Positions 9,235 through 40,811 of a stretch of 56,015 nt of DNA are shown in pieces (within the stretch, counting starts at the first letter, position 1; each line of letters begins with the position of its first letter). This stretch comes from a virus. The stretch is from the IMG/VR virus record IMGVR_UViG_3300046006_001695, positions 1 to 56,015 of that record. One strand, given 5' to 3'. The notes under the pieces were generated by a model. The model did no database searches, was not told where the DNA came from, and saw only the letters and a list, made by a program, of their open reading frames with translations. The position numbers were made by a program, and so were the translations under genes.

Positions 9235-9284
9235 TTCGGGCAATCTCCGAGCGGTTTAGGTTCATTGGTTCTAATAATTATCAC

Positions 9285-10670
9285 TCACTCTTCCGAAAAA
9301 TCATCGTGGAGTTCAGATAATTTCTTTGCAAGAGTCTTTTTTAACATACCTTCTCCCGCCTGCATTTGCTTCTTCAACAGAATGCCCTTGGAAGAATTTT
9401 CATCATAAATTTCAATCTTTCCAAGACCAGTGTTCATATATACGGGCAACGTAACACCATCAACACCGAATCGATTCTTCATAACATGGCAACGGCCAGT
9501 ATGATTTGCCTTATCTTCCAGTTTACGCGACAGGGAAATCACCAAGTCAGCGGTCATAATTTTCTGGTATGATTCGGCAATCTTATCCGCTTGAATAACT
9601 TCATCTTGAATACTACTGCGTTGTGTTTGTGAGGCGGTCCAGCAGGGAATGGCCATCTCACCAGACATACCACGAATTTCTTCATAGATTGCCCCCAGTT
9701 CTTGGTGTCGAGCGTCTATACGATCAGTAGAACGCATAAGATCGGCATAATCAATTAGTATTAAATCGGGTTTGAGTTTATTACTAATCAAATGATCGAG
9801 ATGTGCCCGAATCGTATGAACGGTAATGGATCGTGCAGGATAATATTTAATGATAATATCACCCGTAACCCCATCGACTGCATCTCGCACCAACTGAGGA
9901 TGTTGTGGAACATTACCCGGCTCAATACCCGTAAAGATCGTATCATATCGAAGTCCAACATAATTCTCGTTCAACTCCAAGGTATAATATACCACCCGTT
10001 TTCCTGCCTTTGCAGCGTTTGCTCCAATCGTGGCAAGTGCCCAACTCTTACCAATACCAGATGGTGCAGCAATCACACCAAGTTCACCAGCACCCAATCC
10101 ACCACCGATTAATTGATCAATGGAATCCCAACCAGTGGGAACCACAATACGAGAAATACCCGATAGTCGAATACCAATGTCGTCTCTCCAATTATGTCCA
10201 ATGTTACGAGGCTGTCCTGCTTTCATTGCCCCATCAATCAAATTCTTAATTTCACCATATTGTCCCATTTGCAATAAATCAACGGAACGGATAATAGCAG
10301 ACTTAATTGCTTGGTTTTTTGCAAAGTCTAGAAAACTATCACGGATATATTGCAAGTCTTCATCGTTCTTTCTTTGAAACGCCGACCGTAATTGGTCTTT
10401 AATGGCAATCTTCAACACATCATCATTAATCACATCCAGCTTCACTTTAAATACTTCTAGCGTGGGTAACGCCTTATAATCAGCAAAGTAATCAATCGTC
10501 GTATCAACAATCCATTGCCCCGCGTTTGATTCAAAGAATTTAGGATTTAATACATCCAACGATTGTTGTAAAAATTCGGTAGACGACAACAAACTTGCTA
10601 ATACTTTTGCCTGAAACGTTGGTCCGTATTTTGCAAGATTGTCTACTGTCGTATCATACTGTGGTGTCAT
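9285..10670 (-). CDS. Replicative DNA helicase, DnaB / T4 gp41-like
   Basis: The 461-aa RecA-fold helicase has an N-terminal helical DnaB-type domain (about 1-150). It then has GWDSIDQLIGGGLGAGELG, Walker A APSGIGKS (202-209), the H1a-type region YYTLELNE (228-235), Walker B LILIDYAD (303-310) and TASQTQR (345-351). It unwinds DNA 5'-3' at the fork ahead of polymerase B. The start overlaps the end of the exonuclease gene by 17 bases. No separate primase gene is seen in this window. Confidence 0.93.
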   Translation of the reverse strand: MTPQYDTTVDNLAKYGPTFQAKVLASLLSSTEFLQQSLDVLNPKFFESNAGQWIVDTTIDYFADYKALPTLEVFKVKLDVINDDVLKIAIKDQLRSAFQRKNDEDLQYIRDSFLDFAKNQAIKSAIIRSVDLLQMGQYGEIKNLIDGAMKAGQPRNIGHNWRDDIGIRLSGISRIVVPTGWDSIDQLIGGGLGAGELGVIAAPSGIGKSWALATIGANAAKAGKRVVYYTLELNENYVGLRYDTIFTGIEPGNVPQHPQLVRDAVDGVTGDIIIKYYPARSITVHTIRAHLDHLISNKLKPDLILIDYADLMRSTDRIDARHQELGAIYEEIRGMSGEMAIPCWTASQTQRSSIQDEVIQADKIAESYQKIMTADLVISLSRKLEDKANHTGRCHVMKNRFGVDGVTLPVYMNTGLGKIEIYDENSSKGILLKKQMQAGEGMLKKTLAKKLSELHDDFSEE

Positions 10671-11706
10671 TGTTAAACCTGCTAAGAGGAATGAAATTCT
10701 GCGATAACCAACTGTCGTAGTTGGGGAATGCTTGTAGTAATCTAGACTTCATCATCAACTTTGTCAAGTCTACCTTCCGCAATGAAGTTTGTGTCGTCTG
10801 AAATCTATTGACTACCTTCATTTTAGCATCAATCGACATGATACTTTCGTGGAGATTCATTAATGTAATATTTCGTTCAACTATATCTTCATTATTTAAA
10901 ATGTTCTCAATCATCTTGGGAACCTTTTTTATATTTGCATATTTATTGCGAATCATGTCTACCGAAATTTCTGCGGTTGGGTCAGCAATTTCTGGAAGAT
11001 ACTTTTTCAGATTAGTTTCTCCAACACCCTTTACTCCATCAATATTATCACTCTTATCCCCATCTAACGCACGGAAGAAATGAAAGTGTTTTGGATGAAT
11101 GCCATAATCTTCCAAGATTACTTGGTCACTAAATGTTTTCTTTTTGATGGGATTATAGATTTTGATATTTTCTGCGGCAAGTTGAAAGAAATCCTTATCA
11201 GTAGAATAAATAATACTATCTCCGCCGTCTGCCGTAACCAATTGTGATAAATATGCAATCACATCATCTGCTTCTACGTTGTCCAACGCAAAAATAGTAA
11301 CGGGCAAACATTCCAGCATTTCAACCAATGATACCAACTGCCACTTCATATTTTCTTTTTCTTGTTCATCCGTCGTTAAATCATAACTCCGGTTCAACCG
11401 AACCGGAGGTTTACGATTTGCCTTATACTGCGGATAAATCTTTCTACGACTTTGGCTGCCACCCTTTCCATCAAAAACAATGATGGTCCGGGTGGGCTTA
11501 AACGTGCGAATAGCAAGACCTAAACTCTTAAAGAATCCAATCATGCCCCCAATGTGATTTCCATCGTCATCCATTGAAGGCACGGCAGAATACGAACGTA
11601 TGAAAAGGTTCATCGCGTCAACCAACAATACCCGACTGTTATATGTCATACCTTGCGGGTCTTCTTCAAACTTCATATTGTGAAAAATATCTTGCAGATT
11701 AGCCAT
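10654..11706 (-). CDS. 5'-3' exonuclease / flap endonuclease (T4 RNase H-like)
   Basis: The 350-aa protein has the FEN/PIN nuclease acidic residues: LLVDAMNLFIRSY near 28-40, TIIVFDGKGG near 75, NVEADDVIAYL near 145, STDKDFFQL near 168, and DGDKSDNIDGVKGVG near 215-229, which is a helix-hairpin-helix metal region. It would remove RNA primers and flaps. I chose ATG 11706 (MANLQDIF) rather than the longer open frame, because it overlaps the upstream stop (ATGGCTAA). It is coupled to the helicase gene downstream. Confidence 0.9.
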   Translation of the reverse strand: MANLQDIFHNMKFEEDPQGMTYNSRVLLVDAMNLFIRSYSAVPSMDDDGNHIGGMIGFFKSLGLAIRTFKPTRTIIVFDGKGGSQSRRKIYPQYKANRKPPVRLNRSYDLTTDEQEKENMKWQLVSLVEMLECLPVTIFALDNVEADDVIAYLSQLVTADGGDSIIYSTDKDFFQLAAENIKIYNPIKKKTFSDQVILEDYGIHPKHFHFFRALDGDKSDNIDGVKGVGETNLKKYLPEIADPTAEISVDMIRNKYANIKKVPKMIENILNNEDIVERNITLMNLHESIMSIDAKMKVVNRFQTTQTSLRKVDLTKLMMKSRLLQAFPNYDSWLSQNFIPLSRFNNDTTV

Positions 11707-12028
11707 GTAGGATTTCTTTATTGATAATGTTTGATTGAACACCCATAGCATCTGTTTGGGTGGTGGTCCATGTGCCCATCAAGTTCGGTGGATTAATTGT
11801 GTAGGTGTGCGCAGGAGAGGTACGAATGGTTACTGATGCCTCCCCGCCCCGCTTTAAGGGTCCGACTGGTTTCAACTGAACCTGTGGCTCTGCTTGCATT
11901 AACAACCGACGAAGTTCTAATTCGAAATCGTCACGGTGCTGGGCGACTCCTGGCCAGGAGTACTTGTCGTCCCACGACTTATCATACGCAGACAATACAA
12001 GCTGCACAATATCTTCTGGATTATTCAT
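11699..12028 (-). CDS. Hypothetical protein between recA and exonuclease
   Basis: A 109-aa frame of unknown family. It has an acidic helical N-terminus (NNPEDIVQLVLSAYDKSW, then a helix with ELELRRLLMQAEPQ) and a Thr- and Pro-rich C-terminal part with SVTIRTSPAHTYTINPPNL. The start overlaps the recA stop and the stop overlaps the exonuclease start, so it is a true operon member. Position suggests a recombination or replication accessory, for example a mediator or loader, but nothing in the sequence proves it. Confidence 0.7.
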   Translation of the reverse strand: MNNPEDIVQLVLSAYDKSWDDKYSWPGVAQHRDDFELELRRLLMQAEPQVQLKPVGPLKRGGEASVTIRTSPAHTYTINPPNLMGTWTTTQTDAMGVQSNIINKEILHG

Positions 12029-23104: not shown

Positions 23105-26100
23105 TTAACGGGACTGTTCACGGAACACGCCGAGCGATGATGCGGCGTCATTACTATTTACTAATGCTTTTCCAACCTTTGCTCCATCCATATGAATCTG
23201 TATACCTTGAAGGGCATTGATGAAATTATTCAGTTGCTTTTCTATACCGGCAGTATCGACGGAAATTGGCGCCTGCGGTTGTGACGTGCCTTGTGCTGCA
23301 GTGGATTGTGTCCCAGAAAGAAATGGAAGCATCGACATCATGTTCCCCATGTCAGGCATCATTGCACTCATTGCAGAAACTGCGGGTGCCTTCTTCTTCC
23401 CAAATAATCCACCGATCTTACCCAATGCACTACCCATTAACTTACCAGGACCACCTGCAATTGACGCAAGGGCACCGCCGACCAATGGAATTTTCTTGAG
23501 TAATGGTGCTGCCAAGCCCATTGGTCCGCCGGCTATACTACTGACGACACCTTTACCTTTCTTGCTACCTAGAAATCCACCAATTTTACCCAATGCACTA
23601 CCCATCAACTTACCAGGACCACCTGCAATTGACGCAAGGGCACCGCCAACGAGAGGAATTTTCTTGAGTAATGGTGCCGCCAACGAACCCGCCAATCCCA
23701 TTGGTCCGCCCAATAAACTACCGCCAAGACTGCCCAATCCTACTTTTCCAAGTAAGCTTCCGGCCACTCCTTTTAATCCACCGCCACCTAATAATCCCGT
23801 AGCTTTTCCGAGTAATCCACCAAGGCCAGGAATCTTAGTTGCCATACCCATTAAATTACTGGTCGTTGATCCACCACCTGTGAATAGATTGCTTATACTA
23901 GACATTGCCCCACCGGCCTTACCACCGAACATATCACCAAATTTGTTTTGCGCCATGGAAAGTAATCCGCTAGTGCCACCTGCCTTCAGTTCTTGGGCTT
24001 TGGCAATTGCTCCACCGGCCTTACCACCAAACATACCACCAAACTTGTTTTGCGCCATGGAAAGTAATCCGCTAGTACCACCTGCTTTTAGTTCTTGTGC
24101 TTTAGCAACGCTTTCACCGGCTTTTCCGCCAAATAATCCACTTAACTTTCCTTGCGCCATGGAAAGTAAGCCACCAGTACCACCTGCTTTTAGTTCTTGT
24201 GCTTTAGCAACTGCCCCACCAATTGGCTTATTTAAGTCGGTATTGATAAATTTAGAAACTTTCCCAAATCCACCATTGGGGGCAACTAGTCCAGAAAAAA
24301 CATCGTTTACTTGTTTTTTAAATACATCAAGTTGTTCGTATTTTTCACCTGCTTTCTTTGCAATAGACCCATATGGTAGTTTTGTGGTACCGGCCAAATC
24401 ATCTGCATATGCAATGATATTATCTTTATTATTTAATGCAATGACCCCAGACGGTGTTACCAAGGAACGTTTGCCGTAGCCGGGTTGAGATATTACATCA
24501 TCGCCTTTAGTTGCTGCTGCTTCAATCGCACCTTCTCCTGCACCAAGTATGCCACCGGCGGTACCACCCACTAATCCGCCAGCTGCCATACTTGCTCCTA
24601 TAACAGCCAATCCTGCTGGTATACCAACCCCACTGCCCATTAGTAATAAACCGGCGCCTATACCAGCTAAAGAAGCGCCGCCACCCGCCCCTATTCCAGC
24701 CCCTTGTTGCGTTCGTCCTTTAATTAATTGACCAACCCCTCCCTCTTCGCCCGCGGCAATTTTTCTTTTGCCCTCTTCTACATTTTTTGATCCAAATTTA
24801 AAAAGAGCAATTGCCGCGGCAATCGTTGCAATTCCTGCTGCAGCTGCCATGATGGGTGCTGCCATGCCACTAGTTGCAAATGCGGTTATTCCCGTATTAA
24901 ATGCAATTGTTGCTAGTATAGCATTTGCAGCAATACCTGCTAATTTGGTTAGTAAATCTATCCCAACCGCCATTCGATTTAAAAATCCATTGCCTTCTGC
25001 TTGTAATTCTTCGGGACTTTTTGTATCTCCGTCAGGCGTTTCACCTGCCATTTTTTGCATGTCACTGATAGTCATACCAAACATCGATTCTAACTCAAGT
25101 CGTTCTGATCTACGAAGTTTGGTAATGTCTTTGCCTGTATTGGCTAATTGTGACTTTAGTTCATTGTATAAATCAGCGTCACTACCCGTTTCAGAAATCT
25201 GTGCCAATCTATTGGAATCAAGATTAAATCCCATTGCCCCAAGAGCTGCTGTACCTTCTAAGAATCCTTCAAAATTATTGATGAGACTATCACCAAATTG
25301 ACTGACTTTATTTAAATCAATTCCAATTTTCTTTGCGTCCGCAGCGGCACGAGTAAATGATTGTGCAAATCGTGTACCATTACGTGCTAGTAGTTCCGAA
25401 TACTGTGAAATGGCCTGCATTGCATCTTTTGATGTCAATCCTTTCTTGGCAAATTCTGCAATAAATTTATCTTGTGATTTTTTTGCTTCCGCAACATTTC
25501 CCAACGATTGTGCCGTAAATACACGACGGGCCTTTGTTAGTTGCTCCGTAGTAACGCCCATTGTACGTGCTTGCATTGCTAAATCTTTAGCGGCATCAGT
25601 CGTTAATATACCACCAAATTCATTTTGATATGCGGCTTGTGCACGTTCGATCATTTCGGCAGAAACACCAAACTCTGGTTTTCCACTGAATAAAGATTTT
25701 GCTGATTCTACATAGCTATTAAAACTTGATACGATATTGTCTACTTTAAGATTTGCCGCTTGTCCTGCGGCGATACCAAACTGTTCTTGAGTTTTGTTGA
25801 TAGCACCTACTAACTTTTGCATTTCTGTATTAGCAGAATTTACTGTTGTTGCGAATGCAGTTAACTTTATATTTTTTAATTCAGATGTTTTTAGTCGAGT
25901 TGATTGCTCAAGAGCATTTACACTGTTAGAACTCTTTCTTTCTGCCTCGGAAGCTTTATTTAAATTATCTCGTAAAGTACCACGTATAGCACGCAACCTC
26001 TGATATTCAATTTCTTCTGCTAAACTTCGGCCGGCAGCGGTTCTTCCCTTTGCCGTTAATGATCTATACTCATCCCTCTGTCGTGCATTATCCTGCAAAG

Positions 26101-26371
26101 CACGCATATCCGAGTCGTGTTTCTTTTTAGCAATAGTCAACTGCGTGCGGATTACTTCTATTTCTTGCTTTTTAAGTGCAGTATTTGTCTTTGCATGCGC
26201 AATATCTTGCACCATAGACGCAATACTAGCAACTACTGTATTTGCGTGTTTAGATAAGATTTGTGTCAATCTATTTTGCGATGCCATAGCACTTCTAGTA
26301 GCAATACTAGCGTTATGATATTCTTTTGCTAAATCTTCTGCTTCTCTTTCTAGTCGGTTTGTTGGCGCCAT
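23105..26371 (-). CDS. Tail tape measure protein
   Basis: A 1088-aa protein with a long coiled-coil N-terminus (about 1-200, Lys/Arg/Gln-rich helices), a middle with FGVSAEMIERAQAAYQNEF, and a strongly hydrophobic Gly/Ala-rich region (about 490-620) that fits membrane-penetrating segments. The C-terminal half is built of repeats: three 34-residue units (KAQELKAGG, LLSMAQNKFG, FGGKAGG) and two 56-residue units (PLLKKIPLVGGALAS, GKLMGSALGKIGG). It sets tail length and leaves the tail at DNA entry. Length and repeats are typical. It sits between gp26-like genes and the baseplate genes. Confidence 0.9.
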   Translation of the reverse strand: MAPTNRLEREAEDLAKEYHNASIATRSAMASQNRLTQILSKHANTVVASIASMVQDIAHAKTNTALKKQEIEVIRTQLTIAKKKHDSDMRALQDNARQRDEYRSLTAKGRTAAGRSLAEEIEYQRLRAIRGTLRDNLNKASEAERKSSNSVNALEQSTRLKTSELKNIKLTAFATTVNSANTEMQKLVGAINKTQEQFGIAAGQAANLKVDNIVSSFNSYVESAKSLFSGKPEFGVSAEMIERAQAAYQNEFGGILTTDAAKDLAMQARTMGVTTEQLTKARRVFTAQSLGNVAEAKKSQDKFIAEFAKKGLTSKDAMQAISQYSELLARNGTRFAQSFTRAAADAKKIGIDLNKVSQFGDSLINNFEGFLEGTAALGAMGFNLDSNRLAQISETGSDADLYNELKSQLANTGKDITKLRRSERLELESMFGMTISDMQKMAGETPDGDTKSPEELQAEGNGFLNRMAVGIDLLTKLAGIAANAILATIAFNTGITAFATSGMAAPIMAAAAGIATIAAAIALFKFGSKNVEEGKRKIAAGEEGGVGQLIKGRTQQGAGIGAGGGASLAGIGAGLLLMGSGVGIPAGLAVIGASMAAGGLVGGTAGGILGAGEGAIEAAATKGDDVISQPGYGKRSLVTPSGVIALNNKDNIIAYADDLAGTTKLPYGSIAKKAGEKYEQLDVFKKQVNDVFSGLVAPNGGFGKVSKFINTDLNKPIGGAVAKAQELKAGGTGGLLSMAQGKLSGLFGGKAGESVAKAQELKAGGTSGLLSMAQNKFGGMFGGKAGGAIAKAQELKAGGTSGLLSMAQNKFGDMFGGKAGGAMSSISNLFTGGGSTTSNLMGMATKIPGLGGLLGKATGLLGGGGLKGVAGSLLGKVGLGSLGGSLLGGPMGLAGSLAAPLLKKIPLVGGALASIAGGPGKLMGSALGKIGGFLGSKKGKGVVSSIAGGPMGLAAPLLKKIPLVGGALASIAGGPGKLMGSALGKIGGLFGKKKAPAVSAMSAMMPDMGNMMSMLPFLSGTQSTAAQGTSQPQAPISVDTAGIEKQLNNFINALQGIQIHMDGAKVGKALVNSNDAASSLGVFREQSR
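23401..23690 (-). repeat. Tape measure 168-bp repeats (two copies)
   Basis: The segment beginning CCCAATGCACTACCCAT occurs at 23421 and again at 23589, 168 bases (56 codons) apart, with the surrounding 100 bases nearly identical. Confidence 0.8.
23930..24225 (-). repeat. Tape measure 102-bp repeats (three copies)
   Basis: CGCCATGGAAAGTAA recurs at 23951, 24053 and 24155, each 102 bases (34 codons) apart. The repeats keep frame, so copy-number change would alter tail length in 34-residue steps. Confidence 0.85.
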
Positions 26372-29845: not shown

Positions 29846-30694
29846 TTACTTCCCCTTTTGTTGTTTTATGTCAGCAATATACTGATCCATTTTTTTAGTA
29901 TTTTCTATAAAATATTCCGGCGTTGTAAATGGTGCCGTTTGTTTATCAACGAACTCAGGAACATTTATTTTCGTTCTATGTACCGATTCTTGCTCGCCTG
30001 TTGGTTGTACATGAAATGGACACTTTCGTTCCCCATCGGGTGGGTAATTTCCTTTGATATAATTTTTCTGCCATAGATCGCCCTTGATTTCTCCAACACT
30101 TTTTTTCTTTGCAAAATTGGATCGTTCATGATTCCAATTCCAATAATCAGCCGAAAATTGTTCATCGTCGGCAAGTGTTCTATATTCAGGCTCTACATGA
30201 TCAAACACTGTAATATCGACCGGAAATACTTGGCAAATGGGTTCATCTTTTTCAATGATGACTTCTCCAGGATGGGTGAATCGCCAATTCATGGTAAACG
30301 TAAAGGGAACCCAATACGTTTCCACAATTCCAGATAACGCAACAACATTGTGTTTTGGATAGTTTGGAGCGCCCATAACATATAACGCATATGGATATTC
30401 TGTTTTAAACAAATGTCCCGTATGCCATGTAAATGTTGCTTCTCCGAACAACGAAGTAGCAGACCCTACTCCATCAAGTGTAGTTACTTTTATATCTGAC
30501 GGGAGTATTCCGCCATTCCAACTAACAACAAATTTTGATGGAGATAGTATCTCCCAACCGTACCCGTTTGCTATACTCAGTGGTAAACATCTATATGGGT
30601 TTTTTGCATTTGCCGCATCCATCCAATCTCGTTTTAGATTTGCGGGCCTGATTTTATACGGATTGCCATGAACAGGATAGACTATTAGTTTCAT
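29846..30694 (-). CDS. DUF6065-like protein
   Basis: From ATG 30694 the protein is 282 aa, beginning MKLIVYPVHGNPYKIRPANL, with WMDAANAKNPYRCLPLSIA, YGWEIL, a TWHTGHLF segment and CQVFPVDITVF. This matches my memory of DUF6065, a family of unknown function often found near 2OG-Fe(II) oxygenases in phages and bacteria. The pairing holds here: the oxygenase gene ends 7 bases upstream. The final third is Lys/Glu-rich with ERKCPFH. The open frame upstream of 30694 runs into the oxygenase gene, so I reject that extension. Confidence 0.75.
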   Translation of the reverse strand: MKLIVYPVHGNPYKIRPANLKRDWMDAANAKNPYRCLPLSIANGYGWEILSPSKFVVSWNGGILPSDIKVTTLDGVGSATSLFGEATFTWHTGHLFKTEYPYALYVMGAPNYPKHNVVALSGIVETYWVPFTFTMNWRFTHPGEVIIEKDEPICQVFPVDITVFDHVEPEYRTLADDEQFSADYWNWNHERSNFAKKKSVGEIKGDLWQKNYIKGNYPPDGERKCPFHVQPTGEQESVHRTKINVPEFVDKQTAPFTTPEYFIENTKKMDQYIADIKQQKGK

Positions 30695-30701
30695 AATACA
30701 A

Positions 30702-31235
30702 TTATTTGGGGAATGACCAGTGCATGAATAACTGACATAGATGTTGATTTTCTGCACAAACCAAATCATTACGCCAATGTGTCATTTGCGTGCCCAGCAT
30801 CATGCCGCCGTCGCCACGCTCAATATTAATGGGAACTTCGTTGCCGAGCTTATCAATACACCACAGTGGCCATTCTGTATCAAGGGTATTATCTAATGTG
30901 ATAGAAAGTGTATAGTTCAACCCGTCACGATCAGTGTGTCGATGTAAAGTACCGCCATTATAATAAATACGAGCAAACGAATTTGCTGGAGTCATTTTAA
31001 CTCCTAGTTCATGTTCCAATCGTGGAGTTAATTCACGAAGTGCCGCTTCAAATTCTGGGTGATTTCCTCCATACGAATTATCATAAAACGCGGCGTTGCC
31101 ACCTTCATATACAAGTTGTTCTGCATGTTTCATATCCAGTAGTAATTTAGTAAAATCATTACACTGCTGGTCCGATAATACATTCTTAATATATGAGTAT
31201 CCATGTTTATTAAAAAACTCTGCGGGTGTTTCCAT
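30702..31235 (-). CDS. 2OG-Fe(II) oxygenase, possible prolyl hydroxylase type
   Basis: A 177-aa double-stranded beta-helix enzyme. Iron ligands are visible: LHRHTDRDG gives H100-x-D102 and MTHWRND gives the distal H153, with FARIYYNGG before and QLFMHW at the end. The family couples decarboxylation of 2-oxoglutarate to hydroxylation of a protein or small molecule. The substrate cannot be read from sequence, but neighbours are glycosyltransferases and Pro-rich fibre genes, so a protein-hydroxylating role is plausible. It has its own promoter at 31265-31293 and a ribosome site AGGAGAAA before ATG 31235. Confidence 0.85.
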   Translation of the reverse strand: METPAEFFNKHGYSYIKNVLSDQQCNDFTKLLLDMKHAEQLVYEGGNAAFYDNSYGGNHPEFEAALRELTPRLEHELGVKMTPANSFARIYYNGGTLHRHTDRDGLNYTLSITLDNTLDTEWPLWCIDKLGNEVPINIERGDGGMMLGTQMTHWRNDLVCAENQHLCQLFMHWSFPK

Positions 31236-31264: not shown

Positions 31265-31293
31265 AATATACTTCAATAAATTTTAATTGTCAA
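31265..31293 (-). promoter_or_regulatory. Sigma70-type promoter for the oxygenase
   Basis: TTGACA (31293-31288), a 17-base spacer and TATATT (31270-31265). The -35 overlaps the end of the upstream glycosyltransferase gene. The -10 also reads as TATATTTATT, similar to the late-type boxes. Confidence 0.7.
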
Positions 31294-32090
31294 GTGGTAG
31301 ATTCAATATGATTGTTATAATATTCCAACACCTTATTGTGAAACCGTATATATTCGTCTGTAGTATGACTTCTGAATCTATATGCGTTGTAGTTATCGTT
31401 TGGATTGTAGTTCTCCAGATACGATATTAGCTTTCCACCATCGGTTGCATGATAAAATGTTATATTATGTGGTTCATCCCAATATGCATAGTTTAATTTA
31501 TACATCAATATATATCCCACCAGAACATCTTCATGCTTTAACCACGGAAGTTCAGTCGAGGGCGCGGCCAAGTAATCTTCTTTATGGTTAACTAATTGTT
31601 CCGTGCAATCTCTCGACATATATGTGAAATATCCCGTACAAAATGGATAGGTATATTCAATTAAATTTCTTACGCCGTCATATTGTCTTTCTTTTCTTTC
31701 TAAAGAATGCAAAAATTTATGGAGCTTATTACTATCAATATATGTGGTATTACAAATTCTTACAATATAATCAAATTCTAAATTGTTAAGACACCATTCA
31801 TATGCCAAGATTAATTTTTCTGTCCGAGGGTCGATGCCATCATGTACGACATCAGTAGTCCCGCATACTAAAATATTATTTCCGTCAATGATATTCAATG
31901 ATACATTACCTTTGGCTGGTATAGTTCCAAGCGTAGATATTTCTGATCCATCGGTATTATATCCACCGTAATAATGAATTACCGTAACATCTGGGTGTGG
32001 TATTTTTGACCATGTTGTTTTTGATAGCTCATCCACTACACTATAGGACGATTCAACTGTATTTTGTACTAGTATTACTATTTTTGTCAT
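31290..32090 (-). CDS. Putative glycosyltransferase, GT31-like
   Basis: A 266-aa protein. It opens with a Rossmann-like strand TKIVILVQNTVESSY. The middle EFDYIVRICNTTYIDSNKLHKFL resembles the (F/Y)D-x-V-R-x-N-D-T-Y region of beta-galactosyltransferase-type GT-A enzymes, followed by a GYF strand (FCTGYFTYMSRD) and WLKHEDVLVGYIL, like the E-D-V-x-x-G motif. The DxD is not canonical, so activity is uncertain. It lies directly after a GT-B gene in the sugar cluster and could add galactose or a related sugar. Confidence 0.6.
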   Translation of the reverse strand: MTKIVILVQNTVESSYSVVDELSKTTWSKIPHPDVTVIHYYGGYNTDGSEISTLGTIPAKGNVSLNIIDGNNILVCGTTDVVHDGIDPRTEKLILAYEWCLNNLEFDYIVRICNTTYIDSNKLHKFLHSLERKERQYDGVRNLIEYTYPFCTGYFTYMSRDCTEQLVNHKEDYLAAPSTELPWLKHEDVLVGYILMYKLNYAYWDEPHNITFYHATDGGKLISYLENYNPNDNYNAYRFRSHTTDEYIRFHNKVLEYYNNHIESTT

Positions 32091-32097
32091 AACATTC

Positions 32098-33093
32098 TCA
32101 TTGAAAAGTATTTACTACATGTTTTTTTACACTTACCCACCCTTCAGAATTTATAGTACTATTTCCATATGGAAGATTTATAAAGTCGGACATTTTATTA
32201 TTGACTAAATCAAAAAAATCAAACCCTATAACATCACATACATTTTTTAATACATAAAAAAACTGACTGCGTTGAAAGTTTAGTTTTGCCAAAAAATTAT
32301 TTCGTATTACAGTTGCATCCAATTTCATATCCAATAATAAGTGTATGGATTCTTGTATAGAATAGTCATTTCTATTACATACGATTGAATTGGAATTATC
32401 TAACCACAACTCTCTACCTCCCAGCGTATTAGGTAACGATAAACCATAGACCGCTTCAGTTTTAAAATGTGGATAATAATTTTCTTTTTGTGCATCAGTT
32501 TTGATTTTTACTGATACCACGGGAATGCCGCACGATAGCATTTCTCCCACAGATAAACATGATCCTTCCGATTCTGTTGTCATCAATCCACATTTTGCCA
32601 TATTATAATATTCTGTCATTTTTTCTCCCAGAACGGGATATTCTTTCAGTCTATTCATAATTAAAATATTTAATGGGGTATATGGCACTTCAAACAAATT
32701 AATTCCTTTTGCGGGTCTTCCTGGAAATATGCAATCTATTGTTTTATTTATGTTTGGACTTATGTTATATCTTTCTTCGTTAGTAAAAATGTACTCGCTT
32801 ATCGTGTGTGAGGTTACTCCTTTTTGCATACAAAGTTTTGCTATTTCTAAATTATTAGATAATACCGTGAATTTTTCTGGATTTAACCCGTGAAAGTTTT
32901 TATCTAGAAAAAAGTTTATGAGTTCGGGCATAACCCCGTGCGTTAGTATAATATGATAGTCATCAAATGTTTTTAAGAGTTCAATATTGAGTTTATCAAA
33001 TTTACCAAATCGTACACAATCAAACATAGTTAACAATTTATTGTCTTGAACTATAGATGTTGTATATTCATCTAACATAAATTTTTTTGTCAT
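32098..33093 (-). CDS. Glycosyltransferase, GT-B fold
   Basis: A 331-aa protein. The C-terminal half has YYNMAKCGLMTTESEGSCLS (about 164-183) then VGEMLSCGIPVVS (about 184-196), the donor-binding E-x7-E-type signature of GT-B enzymes (family 4-like). The N-terminal half has alternating strands and helices with ILTHGVMPELINFFL. It would use a nucleotide sugar made from host or phage pools. Its gene is in line with the giant transferase upstream and GT31-like gene downstream, implying stepwise building of one glycan. Confidence 0.75.
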   Translation of the reverse strand: MTKKFMLDEYTTSIVQDNKLLTMFDCVRFGKFDKLNIELLKTFDDYHIILTHGVMPELINFFLDKNFHGLNPEKFTVLSNNLEIAKLCMQKGVTSHTISEYIFTNEERYNISPNINKTIDCIFPGRPAKGINLFEVPYTPLNILIMNRLKEYPVLGEKMTEYYNMAKCGLMTTESEGSCLSVGEMLSCGIPVVSVKIKTDAQKENYYPHFKTEAVYGLSLPNTLGGRELWLDNSNSIVCNRNDYSIQESIHLLLDMKLDATVIRNNFLAKLNFQRSQFFYVLKNVCDVIGFDFFDLVNNKMSDFINLPYGNSTINSEGWVSVKKHVVNTFQ

Positions 33094-33104
33094 TATTTAT
33101 TTTC

Positions 33105-36100
33105 CTATATATTAGACCGTGGCAAAAAGTTTCTTTCACTTATTTTTAAATTAACAAAATCAATTCCAGAAAATCCCATAAATTCTCGTATAGATCTAGT
33201 AGTTCCCTTTCCATATTTCCCTAAATCTCCGCCAAATATAAGTGAATTTAATCGTTTCATTGCATGCGCATGTTTTTGATTTCCAACACTACTTCCGTGA
33301 ACTTGCCAATGTTTTGGACACAACCCCGGATCTCCACTCCTATGCCATGTTATAATTTGTTTTGGAGTAAATATGTCATATCCATGTGTAAAAGAGCGTA
33401 TGGAAAGTGCTAATTCTTCGCCAGTATAATAATGTTCAGGATCTTGCTCAACATCTACCACCCAACTACCTTGTGTAAATACAAATCCACCGTACAATAG
33501 TGGCACGCCTACATTTTTAAATCCGGTATTTAATTCATTTTGATATCCACCATATTCTACCCATAGTTCAGAAACAATGTTCCTAATTTTTACAATATCA
33601 ATCTTATCAAGTTCTGTTTCATGTTGAAAATATACATCTACTCCCTTTTCATCATCTCTGATATACGATGGCGAGCAATATGATAGTAATGGTTTGCGTA
33701 TTCCCCTAGATTTTAAATCTTCATAGTCATTGATTATTAATTCGTCCCAATTTTGTATAAATCGAAGATGTGAATCTATTTGCAAAGAGTAGTGCTCTCC
33801 ATTGTAAGCTTGTTGTGCTATTTGCCGAGCCCAACAACCGCCCTGTCCAATTGAATAGTGATATTTTTTTATCTGTATATTATATTGAGATACTAAATCG
33901 TCAATAGCCGATTCGTTCGTGCCTTCTTTTTCATCATATTGCAGACAGATAGAAAACACTAAATTTTCTGGATACTTTGCTTTGTTAATACAGTCCAGTA
34001 TAGTATTCCGTAATTCCAAATCTAAATGGCTAGCAATTGCTACAAATATTTTTTTCGTGTCATGCATCTCAATTGGACGGTGAAGTGAGTTGGTTCTATT
34101 ACTTTCATCTTCTTTTTCTTCAGTTTGTTTAAATTCAATCGAAAGAAATTCTTCCAGGTTCTTTAAAGACCGTGTATATGAATTACCAGTATTAAATAAT
34201 ACATCATTAATAACTTCAATGGAGTGGTCTTGTTGTAAATTATTGTGATTTATTTCTCTGTATCGTGTGTTATCTGGGTTATGTGCGTTATAATTGTGCC
34301 ATATTACCGTTTCGGCCGGCAATTTTATGTCCCATCCATGTAAATATGATGAAAATGTTTGATAATCTTCCTCTCCTTTGCACAACATGGTAGTTGGAAC
34401 TTTTATCTCTTGAACCCATTCAACCGGAGCAAATATAAATCCCGCCCCTATCCATTTTGTGTCAACCACATCATAGTCATCCAGCGCGGCCAAATTTCGT
34501 GTATGGAGTCTATTATCCGTGGGGGCTTCACTAAAAAATTCTCTAATTACTAGTGGCGCATTTGTTGGATATTTTAGTTCGATGTCATCCAATTCAAATC
34601 CATTTGGATAAGTGGAAATAACAACACGGTTGTGTGGCATACTTTTGTGTTGATGTATTAGAATCCCATCCCAATGTTTTTTGAATCTGCTATGTGCATC
34701 TATTTGAAAGAAATATTGTTCGTCCGTAATAAGTTCGTTTTTTATTTTTTCACGTGCCCACACTACCCCCAACGATTCTCCGTGGGGAGTAAATATAATT
34801 TTTATATTTGGGAAGTTTTCTGCTAGTAATTTATTATAATATTCTTCGGTATCTTGTAGATGCACTCCCACCGTTATGCGACTTATATCCTGTGCATTTT
34901 TGTACAAATTATGCAAGGTTGGAATTAACTGCGTATCTCTGTAACTGGCAATCGAAACAAGTATAGTGTTTTGTTTCATATCCCACACATCTTTAAATTC
35001 TCTAGCCCAATTTGCGATGAAATTTTTTGTATCTATAAAATTACATTGCGTTTCTTGATTGTACACACTAGTATTTACATAAAAATTTTTATCGTCTATA
35101 TCATTCATGTAACCACGAAGTCTATACACATATGATGATAAGGTAGAATAGTCATTGCCTATAAATTTAATTGCTCTAGAACAAATTAGTTGTTCTATGA
35201 TAGGGATAAAATTATAGTGGGCATCTATATCTGCGGCATTGGATACATCGTCGTAAAAATACAATTTATAATGTGTAGATAAAACATCAAAAAATAATTT
35301 ATCTTGTTCGTCGGTTGCTATATACAACACTGAATTTTCTGGCACAATCTCTTTTATATTTTCATAAATTTGCTCTGCTGATATAAACAAAGATTTGTAC
35401 TGAAAATCATTTCGTCTAATGTGTATTGCATAATACTGCTGATTACCCAACCATTCTACGCCTTTCCACCCCAAATCAAAAATTTCATTTGTGTAATGGA
35501 CATGTTTAGCTATCAATTGTTTAAGTTCAACATCAAGATGTGTGTATATTGTTTGATAGAAATTACCTAGCAGTTTACCATCAAAAAATAAACATTCATC
35601 GGTTCCTATCAATTCTAACATGTTCGTTATTGGCCTATGTTTTGTAAATTTTTCATTGGGTCTACTCTTAGAAAAATTTAATACATGATTATCGGGTTCA
35701 GTTATTACTTTACTTATTGATTTGACCGCATCAAATGTATTGTCAATATTTTTAATTTGGCAAAATTCATCAAATTGCATAAATTTAATACCAATATCAT
35801 TTATATCAAAAAAATCTTCTAAGCCCATTTGGTCTTTAAGAAGATACATGTTATATTTCGGAGGTAATACCAAAGTTTTATTGGTTAGATATGAAATACA
35901 TACGGCCAATTCTAACGACATTCGTATATTATTAAATCCACCGGGCCACGGTTTCAGTATTAAATACCCATCGGCACCGTCATAATTAATAAATAAATTT
36001 TCAAAATTCCATTTTAAATGATATAAATAATCGGTGCGTTCTTGTGTAACATTCATAAGTAACAATTCCTCTATTTTATTTCTAGCACTATGCGCTGATA

Positions 36101-36887
36101 TTGGTATTGCTTGATTAAATGTATAATCTTGTTTAAAGAACAATGTAGTGTTATAAGTTTCGTCGGTTATGACATTGGGAAAATGTATAATTTGACTTAC
36201 TTCAGTGCTATTATTTTCTTTCCATGCCGTACAACATCCAAAATCTTCACGATATTGAATATGTAAATTATTTTTCTTAACTGCATAATCCAATCCCCAC
36301 ATTTCTGCTTCCCATCGTTTTGTTTTCCTGCGTATTTCTTCTGATGCAGTTTTGTAGTCCTGCATAATAGTTTTTACTGTTTTAAACTTCATACAAAACG
36401 GATACATTATTCCCTTGCCGTATTCTTCGTTGGGTAACGCCGTCCAATCTTCCATCGGTACATAGTGAATAAACCGTTGAGCAATTACTTCGTTGTCTGT
36501 CGGTTTGTATGTGATGGGTTCTAAAAATATCATATCAGGATCAAGAAATAACAGTGTATCATCATCTTGAAAGTGATTGTTGTCACACAACCATTTTATT
36601 GACATATACTTGTTAGGAATTGCTCCCCACCAATATTTTTCTCCCCGCTTTGCTTCTTCTTCTGCGTGTTCCCACTCCAATGCATAATCGGGCAAATCAA
36701 TAACTTCTACATCTGTATCGGTGTATACATCTAACGGACGATTGTTACCCATCTCGTCTGCGCATCTAAGAAATATTAATTTTCCTTGTTGTTTAACCTT
36801 TTTTCGTGACCAGTTCAATAATCTACATTGCCACGATTGATAATCACTATTGCTGGTTGGTACTATGATATAATCCATATTGCCCAT
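33105..36887 (-). CDS. Giant multi-module glycosyltransferase (GT-A + O-FucT-like + two GT60-like)
   Basis: About 1260 aa with four modules; residue numbers count from the TTG at 36911. Residues 10-290 are a GT-A domain with LLFLDPDMIF (DPD, 120-129). Residues 310-620 resemble GDP-fucose O-fucosyltransferases: PWPGGFNNIRMSLELA near 322 and YYAIHIRRNDFQ near 494. Residues 645-900 (VSIASYRDTQLIPTLHN, FFQIDAHSRFKKHWD near 735) and 955-1200 (VAIASHLDLELRNTILDCI, YSLQIDSHLRFIQNWD near 1041) are two copies of a GT60 / Skp1-GlcNAc-transferase-type domain. The exact start is unsure: TTG 36911, ATG 36887 or ATG 36878; it overlaps the epimerase gene. One chain could add several sugars in order. Confidence 0.85.
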   Translation of the reverse strand: MGNMDYIIVPTSNSDYQSWQCRLLNWSRKKVKQQGKLIFLRCADEMGNNRPLDVYTDTDVEVIDLPDYALEWEHAEEEAKRGEKYWWGAIPNKYMSIKWLCDNNHFQDDDTLLFLDPDMIFLEPITYKPTDNEVIAQRFIHYVPMEDWTALPNEEYGKGIMYPFCMKFKTVKTIMQDYKTASEEIRRKTKRWEAEMWGLDYAVKKNNLHIQYREDFGCCTAWKENNSTEVSQIIHFPNVITDETYNTTLFFKQDYTFNQAIPISAHSARNKIEELLLMNVTQERTDYLYHLKWNFENLFINYDGADGYLILKPWPGGFNNIRMSLELAVCISYLTNKTLVLPPKYNMYLLKDQMGLEDFFDINDIGIKFMQFDEFCQIKNIDNTFDAVKSISKVITEPDNHVLNFSKSRPNEKFTKHRPITNMLELIGTDECLFFDGKLLGNFYQTIYTHLDVELKQLIAKHVHYTNEIFDLGWKGVEWLGNQQYYAIHIRRNDFQYKSLFISAEQIYENIKEIVPENSVLYIATDEQDKLFFDVLSTHYKLYFYDDVSNAADIDAHYNFIPIIEQLICSRAIKFIGNDYSTLSSYVYRLRGYMNDIDDKNFYVNTSVYNQETQCNFIDTKNFIANWAREFKDVWDMKQNTILVSIASYRDTQLIPTLHNLYKNAQDISRITVGVHLQDTEEYYNKLLAENFPNIKIIFTPHGESLGVVWAREKIKNELITDEQYFFQIDAHSRFKKHWDGILIHQHKSMPHNRVVISTYPNGFELDDIELKYPTNAPLVIREFFSEAPTDNRLHTRNLAALDDYDVVDTKWIGAGFIFAPVEWVQEIKVPTTMLCKGEEDYQTFSSYLHGWDIKLPAETVIWHNYNAHNPDNTRYREINHNNLQQDHSIEVINDVLFNTGNSYTRSLKNLEEFLSIEFKQTEEKEDESNRTNSLHRPIEMHDTKKIFVAIASHLDLELRNTILDCINKAKYPENLVFSICLQYDEKEGTNESAIDDLVSQYNIQIKKYHYSIGQGGCWARQIAQQAYNGEHYSLQIDSHLRFIQNWDELIINDYEDLKSRGIRKPLLSYCSPSYIRDDEKGVDVYFQHETELDKIDIVKIRNIVSELWVEYGGYQNELNTGFKNVGVPLLYGGFVFTQGSWVVDVEQDPEHYYTGEELALSIRSFTHGYDIFTPKQIITWHRSGDPGLCPKHWQVHGSSVGNQKHAHAMKRLNSLIFGGDLGKYGKGTTRSIREFMGFSGIDFVNLKISERNFLPRSNI

Positions 36888-37824
36888 GTATCCAATTAAA
36901 TGTTTTTGCAATACCTTCTTCCAATGTGATAGACGGTTCCCAATTTAATAAATTTTTAACTTTTTCGTTGTGAGAATTTCTTCCACGGACGCCTAATGGA
37001 CCGTCTATATATTTACGCTGTAACTTTATATTTGCTGTATTTTCTATAATAGTAATCAACTCGTTCACCGATACCATACGGTCTGACCCAATATTAAATG
37101 CCGATTGATGGTTACTATCCATTACTTGAATGGTTCCTTCGACGGCATCATCAATATACAAGAAAGAACGGGTTTGTTCACCGTCACCCCACACTTCAAT
37201 CTCATTAGAATTGGTGTGTAACGCATGGGCCACTTTTCGACATAATGCGGCGGGAGCCTTTTCTCGTCCCCCTTGCCAGGTACCTACTGGACCATATACA
37301 TTGTGATATCGTACAATTCGGGTTTCAATTCCATAATCTTCAGAGAAGTGACGGCACATTCTTTCCATAAATAATTTTTCCCACCCATATCCATCTTCGG
37401 GGTCGGCAGGATATTCGGTCCCTTCAATTAAAGGTTCTGGGATAGTGGTGTGTTGTTTGTATGAAGGATATATACATGCCGTCGAGGCAAACAGAAATTT
37501 CTTTACTCCACTCACTTGTGCCGCCTTTAGTGTATTGGTATCGGGGATGATAGATAACATACACAGTGTTTTGTTATGTTCAATAAATCCCATACCACCC
37601 ATATCACATGCCATATGATAGACTTCATCAATGGTTTGAGTGGCATGTAGCGCAATGTCATACTCAGTTAAGTCTCCGACAATATTTTCTGCGGAGTCTA
37701 TCACTTGATACCATTTCTCTAATGGTTTTTTGTCAATTGCCCGAACCTTGTATGATTCAGATAATTTTTTGACGAGATGACCGCCGATAAATCCACCGGC
37801 GCCGGTAACCAATATTGTTTTCAT
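36847..37824 (-). CDS. GDP-mannose 3,5-epimerase-like
   Basis: A 325-aa short-chain dehydrogenase fold: GAGGFIGGHLV (8-18), MACDMGGMGFIEHNK (71-85), STACIYP (114-120), the catalytic YGWEK (146-150), GPVGTWQGGREKAPAALCRK (178-197), WGDGEQTRSF, NIGSDRMVSVNEL and GPLGVRGRNSHN. This series is very close to plant GDP-mannose 3,5-epimerases, which make GDP-L-galactose (and GDP-L-gulose). GDP-L-galactose is GDP-L-fucose with one extra hydroxyl, a good donor for the fucosyltransferase-like module encoded next. A late-type box lies 34 bases upstream. Confidence 0.9.
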   Translation of the reverse strand: MKTILVTGAGGFIGGHLVKKLSESYKVRAIDKKPLEKWYQVIDSAENIVGDLTEYDIALHATQTIDEVYHMACDMGGMGFIEHNKTLCMLSIIPDTNTLKAAQVSGVKKFLFASTACIYPSYKQHTTIPEPLIEGTEYPADPEDGYGWEKLFMERMCRHFSEDYGIETRIVRYHNVYGPVGTWQGGREKAPAALCRKVAHALHTNSNEIEVWGDGEQTRSFLYIDDAVEGTIQVMDSNHQSAFNIGSDRMVSVNELITIIENTANIKLQRKYIDGPLGVRGRNSHNEKVKNLLNWEPSITLEEGIAKTFNWIHGQYGLYHSTNQQ

Positions 37825-37888: not shown

Positions 37889-39109
37889 TTATTCAGGTGC
37901 ACCGCATACACTGCCGCCAACACATACTAATGAACAACACTCTTCATTAAAACTACATGATTCTCCAGTACCTAAGCACGACACTGGCGATGGTGTTGGT
38001 TCCGGCACCACCGGCGATGGCGTTACCGGCGACGGTGTTGGTGATACTGGTGATGGGGTTGGTACTGAGAAACATGTTCCATTTAATTCAAAGTCACACG
38101 GACATTCTGCTGGACATGTACCTAATGAGTTTCCTGAACCGTCTGTACATGCACTACCACATCCAAGCGCCGATGTTGGTGACGGCGTTACTGGCGACGG
38201 TGTTACTGGCGACGGTGTTACTGGCGACGGTGTTACTGGTGACGGTGTTACTGGTGACGGCGTTACTGGCGACGGTGTTGGTGACGGTGTTACTGGTGAC
38301 GGTGTTACTGGTGACGGCGTTACTGGCGACGGTGTTGGTGACGGCGTTACTGGCGACGGTGTTGGTGACGGCGTTACTGGCGACGGTGTTGGTGACGGCG
38401 TTACTGGCGACGGTGTTGGTGACGGAGTTGGTGCCACGCAAGCAGAACAATTAGTTGTCTCGCACGATCCAATACCACACGCAGTTGTTGTATAGTAGTT
38501 GCGTAAGAAGACTCCTCCCCCAATTGATTCGCATGAAATTGTCGTTCCTACTACACATGCTACTGGTGACGGTGTTACTGGTGACGGTGTTACTGGTGAC
38601 GGTGTTACTGGCGACGGTGTTACTGGCGACGGTGTTACTGGCGACGGTGTTACTGGTGACGGCGTTGGTGATGGTGTTGGCGTTACTGGCGATGGCGTTG
38701 GTGATGGTGTTGGCGCTACTGGCGATGGTGTTGGTGAAGGTGTTGGTGCCGGTGTTACTGGTGATGGTGTTACTGGTGATGGTGTTACTGGTGATGGTGT
38801 TGGTGAAGGCGTTGGTGAAGGCGTTGGCGCCGGTGTTGGTGACGGCGTTGGTGCTACAGGTGACGGTGTTGGCGCAGGTGCATAACACAAAAAATAATTG
38901 CGTGGTTTTGCTGCAATTAAAGTATAATTTACTTCGGTATATCCACTTGGACATGATGCCGACGGCGTTCCCGATGCACCTGTAGTCCCATATGACGCAG
39001 TTAATGCGTATGCAGGAATGTATGACGGATTATCGATGGTATTTACACGACTTGCCGTGACCGCATAAGAACTGGTTGACGGAATGCCAAATGGAAAAAA
39101 TATACTCAT
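37889..39109 (-). CDS. (PTPSPV)n fibre protein with Cys-rich modules and knottin-like end
   Basis: A 406-aa protein. Residues 1-50 share FPFGIP and SSYAVTAS with the two genes upstream, a likely fibre attachment segment. Long Pro/Thr/Ser/Val repeats (78-184, 225-312, 348-376) alternate with Cys modules: C53-C75, C185-C224, C317-C347, and a C-terminal C378-x6-C-x5-CC-x3-C-x5-C402. That last spacing is the inhibitor-cystine-knot pattern. Extended Pro/Thr stalks with disulfide heads look like a mucin-like adhesin. The ATG overlaps the upstream stop (TAATG). It is encoded beside glycosyltransferases, so the stalk may be glycosylated. Confidence 0.8.
38166..38436 (-). repeat. 15-bp tandem repeat encoding PSPVT
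   Basis: Repeats of GGTGTTACTGGCGAC-type units, with single-base variants, encode the second Pro-rich stalk. Repeat number is likely to vary between relatives. Confidence 0.9.
38563..38880 (-). repeat. 15-bp and 18-bp tandem repeats encoding PSPVT / PTPSPV
   Basis: Same unit as 38166-38436 but with more variants, encoding the first Pro-rich stalk. Confidence 0.9.
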
Positions 39110-40490: not shown

Positions 40491-40811
40491 CTACGGTTCT
40501 GGCGTAGGCTCAGGAGTAGGTTCCGGCGTTGGTTCAGGTGTTGGTTCCGGTGTTGGCTCCGGTATTGGTTCAGGAGTAGGTTCTGGTGTTGGTACTGGTA
40601 GATATTCCAATCCTAACGCATCACATATTTCGTCTTCATCCCACGTTTGCTTACTCTTGGCAGCTGCGGCAGCAATTAACGCAGTATCCGATAAATTTGC
40701 CTGTGCTTGTAATTGTCCTACATCAGTAACATCAGTGTAATAAATAACTTGTACCGCATCGGAATTGACGTTTTTACTATAATACATTAGGTACTTTAAA
40801 AATGCTGACAT
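40491..40811 (-). CDS. Small protein with (PTPE)n tail
   Basis: A 106-aa protein: residues 1-72 are a compact, mostly helical domain (QLQAQANLSDTALIAAAAAK, WDEDEICDALGLEYLP), then eight or so PTPE units run to the stop. An acidic Pro/Thr stalk with a small head differs from the neutral PTPSPV stalk of the fibre gene nearby. It may be an extended linker or spike. Upstream sequence has GTAGAG before ATG. Confidence 0.65.
   Translation of the reverse strand: MSAFLKYLMYYSKNVNSDAVQVIYYTDVTDVGQLQAQANLSDTALIAAAAAKSKQTWDEDEICDALGLEYLPVPTPEPTPEPIPEPTPEPTPEPTPEPTPEPTPEP
40497..40600 (-). repeat. 12-bp tandem repeat encoding PTPE
   Basis: About eight near-identical 12-base units (GGTTCAGGTGTT-type and variants on the plus strand). 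Confidence 0.85.

What the first reader, a model, noticed from the sequence alone, without database searches (positions are those of the whole stretch)
33105..36887. Single polypeptide with four glycosyltransferase modules including tandem GT60-like domains
The two GT60-like modules share IAS-x-R/L-D at their start and QID(A/S)H-x-RF-x-x-x-WD in the middle, spaced about 306 residues apart. An O-fucosyltransferase-like domain with HIRRNDF and a DPD-type GT-A domain precede them. Such a chain could build an oligosaccharide processively. Multi-GT fusions are rare in phages of this size.
Basis: partly seen in the sequence, partly recalled or inferred. Interest (0 to 1): 0.65.

Follow-up and report, generated by a model that had tools for sequence, protein, structure and literature searches.

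The report
Phage four-module protein glycosylation enzyme
A phage gene fuses four sugar-transferring enzymes into one chain, and it sits in a conserved gene set with a prolyl-hydroxylase-like enzyme and a proline-rich fibre-like protein, which suggests that some phages decorate their own proline-rich fibres with sugars much as plants and amoebae do.

Summary
One intact reading frame (window 33105-36887, minus strand, about 1,257-1,260 aa) has four modules: an HPAT-like GT-A domain, an O-fucosyltransferase-type domain, and two GT60 domains with intact motifs. All four are under purifying selection in relatives. The two GT60 modules are not a recent duplication (24% identity, separate clades). 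The second is a separate gene in many relatives.

The surroundings matter more. In 54 of 55 HPAT loci a 2-oxoglutarate oxygenase lies in the same operon. In 42 it is a prolyl 4-hydroxylase gene ending 3-7 bp upstream. In the window the oxygenase is a smaller gene (30702-31235) whose confident model best matches prolyl hydroxylases. The operon also holds a GDP-mannose 3,5-epimerase and often sits beside a P/T/S-rich repeat protein, here (TPSPV)n at 37889-39109.

HPAT (GT95) and GT60 are families known for glycosylating protein hydroxyproline in plants and protists. I conclude that this is a phage-encoded protein O-glycosylation system, probably acting on hydroxylated Pro/Thr/Ser repeats of a fibre-like protein. 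Acceptor, sugars and linkage are inferred, not shown. No paper in the searched library describes it in phages. Related clusters also occur in Bacteroidota and Myxococcota contigs.

The parts
33105..36887 (-). Four-module glycosyltransferase (HPAT-like + O-FucT + GT60 + GT60), 1260 aa from the ATG at 36887; relatives suggest a start at 36878
36018..36878 (-). Module 1: HPAT-like GT-A domain with invariant DPDM
   Evidence: PF23452 24.7 bits vs cutoff 23.9, 5 of 6 members match; AF2 pTM 0.77; GT-A fold, Foldseek E 5e-10, VIA Z 15.7 to GT6 enzymes
35106..35966 (-). Module 2: O-FucT-type domain (HIRRNDF, STLSSY)
   Evidence: PF10250 E 7.5e-25 to 2.2e-26; weak alignment to human POFUT2 over the same motifs
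34062..34994 (-). Module 3: GT60 domain a (QIDAH, GEED, WHN)
   Evidence: PF11397 4.9e-39; motif check and tree
33126..34049 (-). Module 4: GT60 domain b (QIDSH, GEEL, WHR); a separate gene in many relatives
   Evidence: PF11397 1.5e-43; tree
36847..37824 (-). GDP-mannose 3',5'-epimerase homologue, overlapping the GT gene; likely makes a GDP-L-sugar donor
   Evidence: phmmer to Arabidopsis GME E 9e-88, next family 4.5e-30
37889..39109 (-). Proline/threonine/serine-rich repeat protein (TPSPV)n, likely fibre component and probable acceptor; knottin-like Cys motif at the C-terminus
40491..40811 (-). Second Pro-rich repeat protein (PEPT)n; possible acceptor
30702..31235 (-). 2-oxoglutarate/Fe(II) oxygenase with conserved HxD...H, prolyl-hydroxylase-like fold
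   Evidence: AF2 pLDDT 95.4; top folds P. putida P4H and PHD2, E 2.6e-9, TM 0.75; iron ligands invariant in alignment
32098..33093 (-). GT-B-like glycosyltransferase, weak match
   Evidence: PF13692 3.4e-4, below cutoff; homologue in L059/G012 cluster
31290..32090 (-). Cluster gene of unassigned family, recurrent in relatives
   Evidence: no family match; recurs in clusters
29846..30769 (-). DUF6065 protein at the cluster end, conserved in the window lineage only
   Evidence: PF19541 8.5e-75

Best explanation
The chain is a multi-step O-glycosyltransferase that decorates a virion (fibre-like) protein. Proposed order: (1) a phage 2-oxoglutarate oxygenase hydroxylates prolines in the Pro/Thr/Ser-rich repeats of the neighbouring gene product; (2) the HPAT-like and/or GT60 modules start a glycan on the hydroxyprolines (GT60 could also use Thr); (3) the second GT60 and the O-FucT-type module extend it, the latter fed with a GDP-L-sugar (L-galactose or L-gulose) made by the adjacent GDP-mannose 3,5-epimerase. 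Carbamoyltransferases in relatives would cap the sugars. Shown by sequence: the module identities, the intact motifs, the operon conservation, the hydroxylase and epimerase homologies, and the Pro-rich neighbour. Inferred: the acceptor, the donors, the hydroxyproline linkage, the order, and that the repeat protein is in the virion. My estimate for protein O-glycosylation of the repeats by any linkage is about 0.7; for the hydroxyproline-linked form, about 0.5.
For: Families: HPAT, O-FucT and 2x GT60. GT95/HPAT are the plant hydroxyproline O-arabinosyltransferases (PMC8012813); GT60 includes Gnt1, which adds GlcNAc to hydroxyproline of Skp1 and needs the prolyl hydroxylase (PMC6939170). In 54 of 55 HPAT loci a 2OG oxygenase is in the operon, 42 of them a P4H gene 3-7 bp upstream; that gene matches solved prolyl 4-hydroxylases at E ~4e-27 and human P4HA2 at 2e-19. 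The window's own oxygenase folds like prolyl hydroxylases. A strict Pro-rich repeat ORF lies on the same strand near the cluster in 20 of 55 loci (many flanks are cut off), against 0 of 80 tail-sheath loci. On seven long contigs it lies unusually close to the cluster, combined permutation p 7.8e-4. From the other direction: of 80 loci picked only by a Pro-rich DNA pattern, 3 have a P4H next to the repeat gene, two of them also with GT60, one also with O-FucT. Looser P/T/S repeats also accompany cellular clusters in Bacteroidota (L261) and Myxococcota (L263). In a close relative (tail sheath 93% identical) the orthologous fibre gene carries TPTATP repeats and is followed by two lone GT60 genes. 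The epimerase is GME-like, E 9e-88.
Against: No biochemical evidence. The window lineage lacks the canonical P4H domain (PF13640 absent in the window and seven kin contigs); its small oxygenase is P4H-like by fold only, and the fold is broad. The HPAT match of the window itself barely passes the cutoff, and its model resembles GT6/glycogenin-type GT-A enzymes in general. Some clusters with ample flank (L018, L019, L022, L043) show no Pro-rich repeat. (PT)n linkers are common in phages without these genes (75 of 80 pattern loci). In GT60-only loci no hydroxylase was found nearby, so GT60 may act on Thr. The 80-locus control came from a different genome region with shorter flanks. Chlorovirus PBCV-1 encodes a P4H, yet an amino-acid analysis of particles reportedly found no hydroxyproline (reference list of PMC7019647).
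Confidence: 0.5

Rival explanations
1. Mucin-like O-glycosylation: the GT60 and other modules act on Thr/Ser of the P/T/S-rich repeats, and the oxygenases hydroxylate something else or only tune the backbone.
For: Repeats are rich in T and S next to P; GT60 also includes a Trypanosoma cruzi polypeptide GlcNAc-transferase (PMC6939170), a mucin Thr enzyme from general knowledge. GT60-only phages have TPTATP repeats and no hydroxylase found nearby.
Against: A 2OG oxygenase accompanies 54 of 55 HPAT loci, usually 3-7 bp from the GT gene, which is hard to explain if hydroxylation is unrelated.
Confidence: 0.25
2. The enzymes remodel a host surface polysaccharide or make an exopolysaccharide (serotype conversion or superinfection exclusion).
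For: Phage glycosyltransferases with that role are known (general knowledge; mentioned in PMC12619734); related clusters lie in Bacteroidota contigs beside other envelope-like genes.
Against: HPAT, GT60 and O-FucT families have protein acceptors in characterised members; the cluster lies beside tail/virion-like genes; a prolyl hydroxylase has no obvious role in polysaccharide synthesis.
Confidence: 0.12
3. DNA hypermodification: the 2OG oxygenase oxidises a base and the glycosyltransferases glycosylate it.
For: Oxygenase plus glycosyltransferase sets that modify phage DNA are known from general knowledge; phage glycosyltransferases that modify DNA are cited in PMC12619734.
Against: The oxygenases are prolyl-hydroxylase-type; the TET/JBP family did not ring in eight contigs of this group, although that search had no positive control; the cluster sits with fibre genes.
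Confidence: 0.05

Closest known systems
Skp1 hydroxyproline glycosylation pathway of Dictyostelium/Toxoplasma (PhyA, GT60 Gnt1, bifunctional PgtA)
   Same: Prolyl hydroxylase plus a GT60 GlcNAc-transferase, and a multi-domain glycosyltransferase that includes a fucosyltransferase (PMC6939170)
   Different: There one proline of Skp1 is modified; here a repeat protein in a phage is the likely acceptor, the domains are HPAT + O-FucT + 2x GT60 in one chain, and no GT74/GT2 domain was found
Plant extensin/HRGP O-glycosylation (P4H, HPAT GT95, SGT GT96)
   Same: HPAT-like module, prolyl hydroxylase, proline-rich S/T/P repeat acceptor (PMC8012813)
   Different: Plant HPATs are Golgi-anchored membrane enzymes; here the domain is part of a four-module phage fusion; similarity is remote (24.7 bits for the window)
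Chlorovirus PBCV-1 capsid glycosylation (A064R, A111/114R)
   Same: Virus-encoded multi-domain glycosyltransferases for a virion protein glycan; the virus also encodes a prolyl 4-hydroxylase (PMC7019647)
   Different: N-linked glycans on the capsid protein, eukaryotic host, other sugar-transfer activities
Mycobacteriophage virion glycosylation
   Same: Glycans on phage capsid and tail tube proteins (cited in PMC12619734)
   Different: No hydroxylase or HPAT/GT60 fusion known to me there; the primary paper was not held
Synechococcus phage S-SCSM1 O-FucT locus
   Same: O-FucT flanked by two 2OG oxygenase genes, with carbamoyltransferase and GDP-sugar genes, in a cultured phage
   Different: No HPAT or GT60 module in that stretch

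Membership tests
GT60 (PF11397) | Profile match above the curated cutoff for each module | tested here: met
   135.2 and 150.0 bits vs cutoff 21
GT60 (PF11397) | DxH metal-site motif and downstream acidic/His motifs intact | tested here: met
   QIDAH/GEED/WHN and QIDSH/GEEL/WHR; functional role of the motif is from general knowledge
GT60 (PF11397) | UDP-GlcNAc:polypeptide transfer | not testable with these tools
   needs an assay
O-fucosyltransferase (PF10250) | Profile match above the curated cutoff over the full model | tested here: met
   93.7 bits vs 31.5, profile 1-326 of 326
O-fucosyltransferase (PF10250) | Uses GDP-L-fucose | not testable with these tools
   adjacent epimerase suggests GDP-L-galactose or L-gulose instead, inference only
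HPAT / GT95 (PF23452) | Profile match above the curated cutoff | tested here: met
   window 24.7 vs 23.9; 5 of 6 homologues match, best 1.6e-12; distant members L053 and L263 fall below the cutoff
HPAT / GT95 (PF23452) | GT-A fold with acidic motif | tested here: met
   DPDM invariant in 16 sequences
HPAT / GT95 (PF23452) | Transfers L-arabinofuranose to hydroxyproline | not testable with these tools
   needs an assay
Prolyl 4-hydroxylase (operon partner in relatives) | Sequence homology to solved P4H with HxD...H...K | tested here: met
   E 4.5e-27 to 3itq/5hv0
Prolyl 4-hydroxylase (window gene 30702-31235) | Sequence homology to P4H (PF13640) | tested here: not met
   no PF13640 match in the window; no sequence match to a solved P4H
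Prolyl 4-hydroxylase (window gene 30702-31235) | Prolyl-hydroxylase-like double-stranded beta-helix with iron triad | tested here: met
   top Foldseek hits are prolyl hydroxylases, TM 0.75; H100, D102, H153 invariant
GDP-mannose 3',5'-epimerase | Full-length homology to a solved GME, far above other SDR families | tested here: met
   297.7 vs 108 bits
TET/JBP DNA-hypermodification systems | TET/JBP oxygenase (PF12851) | tested here: inconclusive
   not found in 8 contigs, but the control did not ring

The most novel reading that the evidence does not exclude
Phages (and some bacteria) possess a hydroxyproline O-glycosylation pathway, prolyl hydroxylase plus HPAT/GT60/O-FucT in one chain, that turns (T/S/V)P repeat fibres into glycosylated, extensin- or mucin-like appendages. 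It would be the first such system outside eukaryotes and their viruses, to my knowledge and in the searched library.
Probability: 0.45. Interest if true: 0.85.

Novelty: new variant of a known kind. Interest (0 to 1): 0.7.

Why it matters
A virus-encoded prolyl 4-hydroxylase was among the abundant auxiliary genes in a Baltic Sea virome, and how viruses use it was called cryptic (PMC9301287). This operon gives a concrete, testable role: preparing proline-rich repeats for glycosylation. If true, it extends hydroxyproline glycosylation to phages and bacteria, offers a one-chain enzyme for making extensin- or mucin-like glycoproteins, and suggests glycan-coated fibres as a route to host recognition or shielding.

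Tried and rejected
A recent tandem duplication of the GT60 module was rejected: the modules share 24% identity and fall in separate clades; in L011 the second GT60 belongs to a third clade. PDB sequence searches with the whole chain, the HPAT alignment or GT60 module b gave nothing useful. NCBIfam gave no match for the chain. The PHROG label 'ferrochelatase' for the window's 2OG gene was rejected on its fold and HxD...H motif. A canonical P4H elsewhere in the window or its seven kin contigs was not found. A TET/JBP oxygenase was looked for and not found, without a positive control. Literature searches for phage hydroxyproline, HPAT, GT60 or multi-GT systems returned nothing describing this; the library lacks most subscription journals.
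Full report
What is there. Window 33105-36911 (minus strand) is one open frame without internal stops. The first ATG is at 36887 (1,260 aa); relatives start at the MDYI that corresponds to 36878. The preceding gene (36847-37824) overlaps it. Pfam finds PF11397 (GT60) and PF10250 (O-FucT) far above cutoff. The N-terminal 287 residues match PF23452 (HPAT) at 24.7 bits against a cutoff of 23.9; five of six homologous domains match, best 1.6e-12. A model of this domain (pLDDT 72.5, pTM 0.77; poor after residue 240) has a GT-A fold, closest to GT6 enzymes and glycogenin. DPDM is invariant in 16 sequences. Both GT60 modules keep QID(A/S)H, GEE and WH motifs. Compared with L011 and L012, nonsynonymous differences per site are below synonymous ones in every module (pN 0.17-0.48, pS 0.70-0.81; synonymous sites near saturation), so all four are under purifying selection.

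Fusion and fission. Two searches of viral contigs gave 59 loci, several of them on the same contig. Most relatives have a three-module chain (HPAT + O-FucT + GT60, 904-923 or 1,039 aa) followed by a separate ~307-aa GT60 gene, often with a carbamoyltransferase between; others are fused like the window (L002, L042, L043, L045, L046, and L011 at 1,519 aa); in L053 O-FucT and HPAT are separate genes. A tree of 51 GT60 domains places first modules in one clade and second modules, fused or solo, in another; the second GT60 of L011 lies in a third clade. The two modules of the window are 24% identical. The tandem arrangement is therefore better read as a joining of two old, different GT60 lineages, and not as a recent duplication.

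Operon partners. In 54 of 55 non-redundant HPAT loci a 2-oxoglutarate oxygenase is encoded on the same strand; the one exception is a contig end. In 42 the oxygenase gene ends 3-7 bp before the GT gene. Its N-terminal half is a prolyl 4-hydroxylase: E 4.5e-27 to bacterial P4H structures, 2e-19 to human P4HA2, 7e-16 to Chlamydomonas P4H. The window and its closest kin (L011-L017) lack this domain and carry instead a 177-aa oxygenase that aligns with the second half of the two-domain proteins. Its model (pLDDT 95.4) best matches P. putida prolyl-4-hydroxylase, PHD2 and Dictyostelium PHD (E 2.6e-9, TM 0.75) with the HxD...H triad invariant. The overlapping gene 36847-37824 is a GDP-mannose 3,5-epimerase homologue (297.7 bits to Arabidopsis GME, next family 108 bits), so a GDP-L-sugar donor for the O-FucT-type module is plausible.

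The likely acceptor. Next to the epimerase lies a 406-aa protein made largely of (TPSPV) repeats (37889-39109), and slightly further a (PEPT) repeat protein (40491-40811); nearby genes match tail and virion structural families. Under a strict criterion a Pro-rich repeat ORF lies on the same strand near the cluster in 20 of 55 loci, many others having too little flank, against 0 of 80 tail-sheath loci (shorter flanks and another genome region, so only a rough control). On seven long contigs the nearest repeat gene lies one to four genes from the cluster; combined permutation p is 7.8e-4, or 1.1e-3 without the contig nearest to the window. In the reverse direction, 80 loci selected only by a Pro-rich DNA pattern included three with a P4H directly beside the repeat gene: L071 and L138, which also carry GT60, and L109; none of 80 tail-sheath loci had any of these domains. 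Looser (SPT)n, (VSPT)n or (TPVS)n repeats accompany the Myxococcota, Bacteroidota and L053 clusters. L018, L019, L022 and L043 have flank but no such repeat.

A natural comparison. Contig G015 has a tail sheath 93% identical to that of the window (L189) and an orthologous fibre gene with a closely similar N-terminus, but its repeats are TPTATP and it is followed by two lone GT60 genes instead of the HPAT cluster. G019 and G003 carry a 1,549-aa Pro-rich protein followed by two GT60 genes. The link between GT60 and P/T-rich repeats thus also appears without an adjacent HPAT gene. It means that Thr linkage must be kept as a rival.

Beyond phages. One scan of bacterial and archaeal genomes found four loci: a Saprospiraceae MAG and a Bacteroidetes assembly with P4H + HPAT + O-FucT + GT60-type chains of 1,516-1,532 aa, a Myxococcota MAG with separate P4H, O-FucT and HPAT genes beside an (SPT)n ORF, and a MAG contig with HPAT alone. 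These are draft contigs, so misassigned phage DNA cannot be excluded. Among cultured phages the nearest partial match is Synechococcus phage S-SCSM1 (2OG, O-FucT, 2OG, carbamoyltransferase, GDP-sugar genes). By tail sheath the window is nearest to Microcystis phage Mel-JY01 (46%), with Flavobacterium phages at 40%, so its host is uncertain.

Interpretation. GT95/HPAT enzymes add arabinose to hydroxyproline in plants (PMC8012813) and GT60 Gnt1 adds GlcNAc to hydroxyproline in Skp1, dependent on the prolyl hydroxylase (PMC6939170). A cluster that combines prolyl hydroxylase, HPAT, GT60 and O-FucT beside a proline-rich repeat protein is most simply a hydroxyproline O-glycosylation pathway for that protein. 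I put this at about 0.5, and protein O-glycosylation of the repeats by any linkage at about 0.7. Family names are not assays, and the window's own hydroxylase is assigned by fold only. Virus-encoded multi-domain glycosyltransferases for a virion protein are known from chlorovirus PBCV-1, which also encodes a P4H, but its reported amino-acid analysis found no hydroxyproline (PMC7019647). That is a warning against assuming the product.

Noticed in passing
window 37889-39109, C-terminus; also L012-L017: The repeat protein ends in a knottin-like cysteine pattern ([25 protein letters not shown]); kin proteins have a similar CC-containing motif.
   Followed up: partly
L305 (G015:12000-31000) 8811-12011: Close relative whose orthologous fibre gene has TPTATP repeats and two lone GT60 genes instead of the HPAT cluster: a cassette swap.
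   Followed up: partly
L301 (Synechococcus phage S-SCSM1, MK867354.2 102203-104620): O-FucT flanked by two 2OG oxygenase genes, with carbamoyltransferase and GDP-fucose/GME genes: a cultured phage in which to test the idea.
   Followed up: no
L300 (Xanthomonas phage XacN1): GT60 gene directly followed by a 765-aa carbamoyltransferase, with no annotated hydroxylase nearby.
   Followed up: no
L138 4775-7342: O-FucT fused to a carbamoyltransferase (856 aa), between a P4H gene and GT60, beside three Pro-rich repeat ORFs.
   Followed up: partly
window 30702-31235: PHROG families 2954/3531 label this kind of 2OG oxygenase 'ferrochelatase', which looks like a misannotation.
   Followed up: partly
window 23904-24220: 102-bp tandem repeat, about 3 copies, inside the 1088-aa ORF 23105-26371.
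   Followed up: no
window 29846-30769: DUF6065 protein conserved at the cluster end in the window lineage only, function unknown.
   Followed up: no
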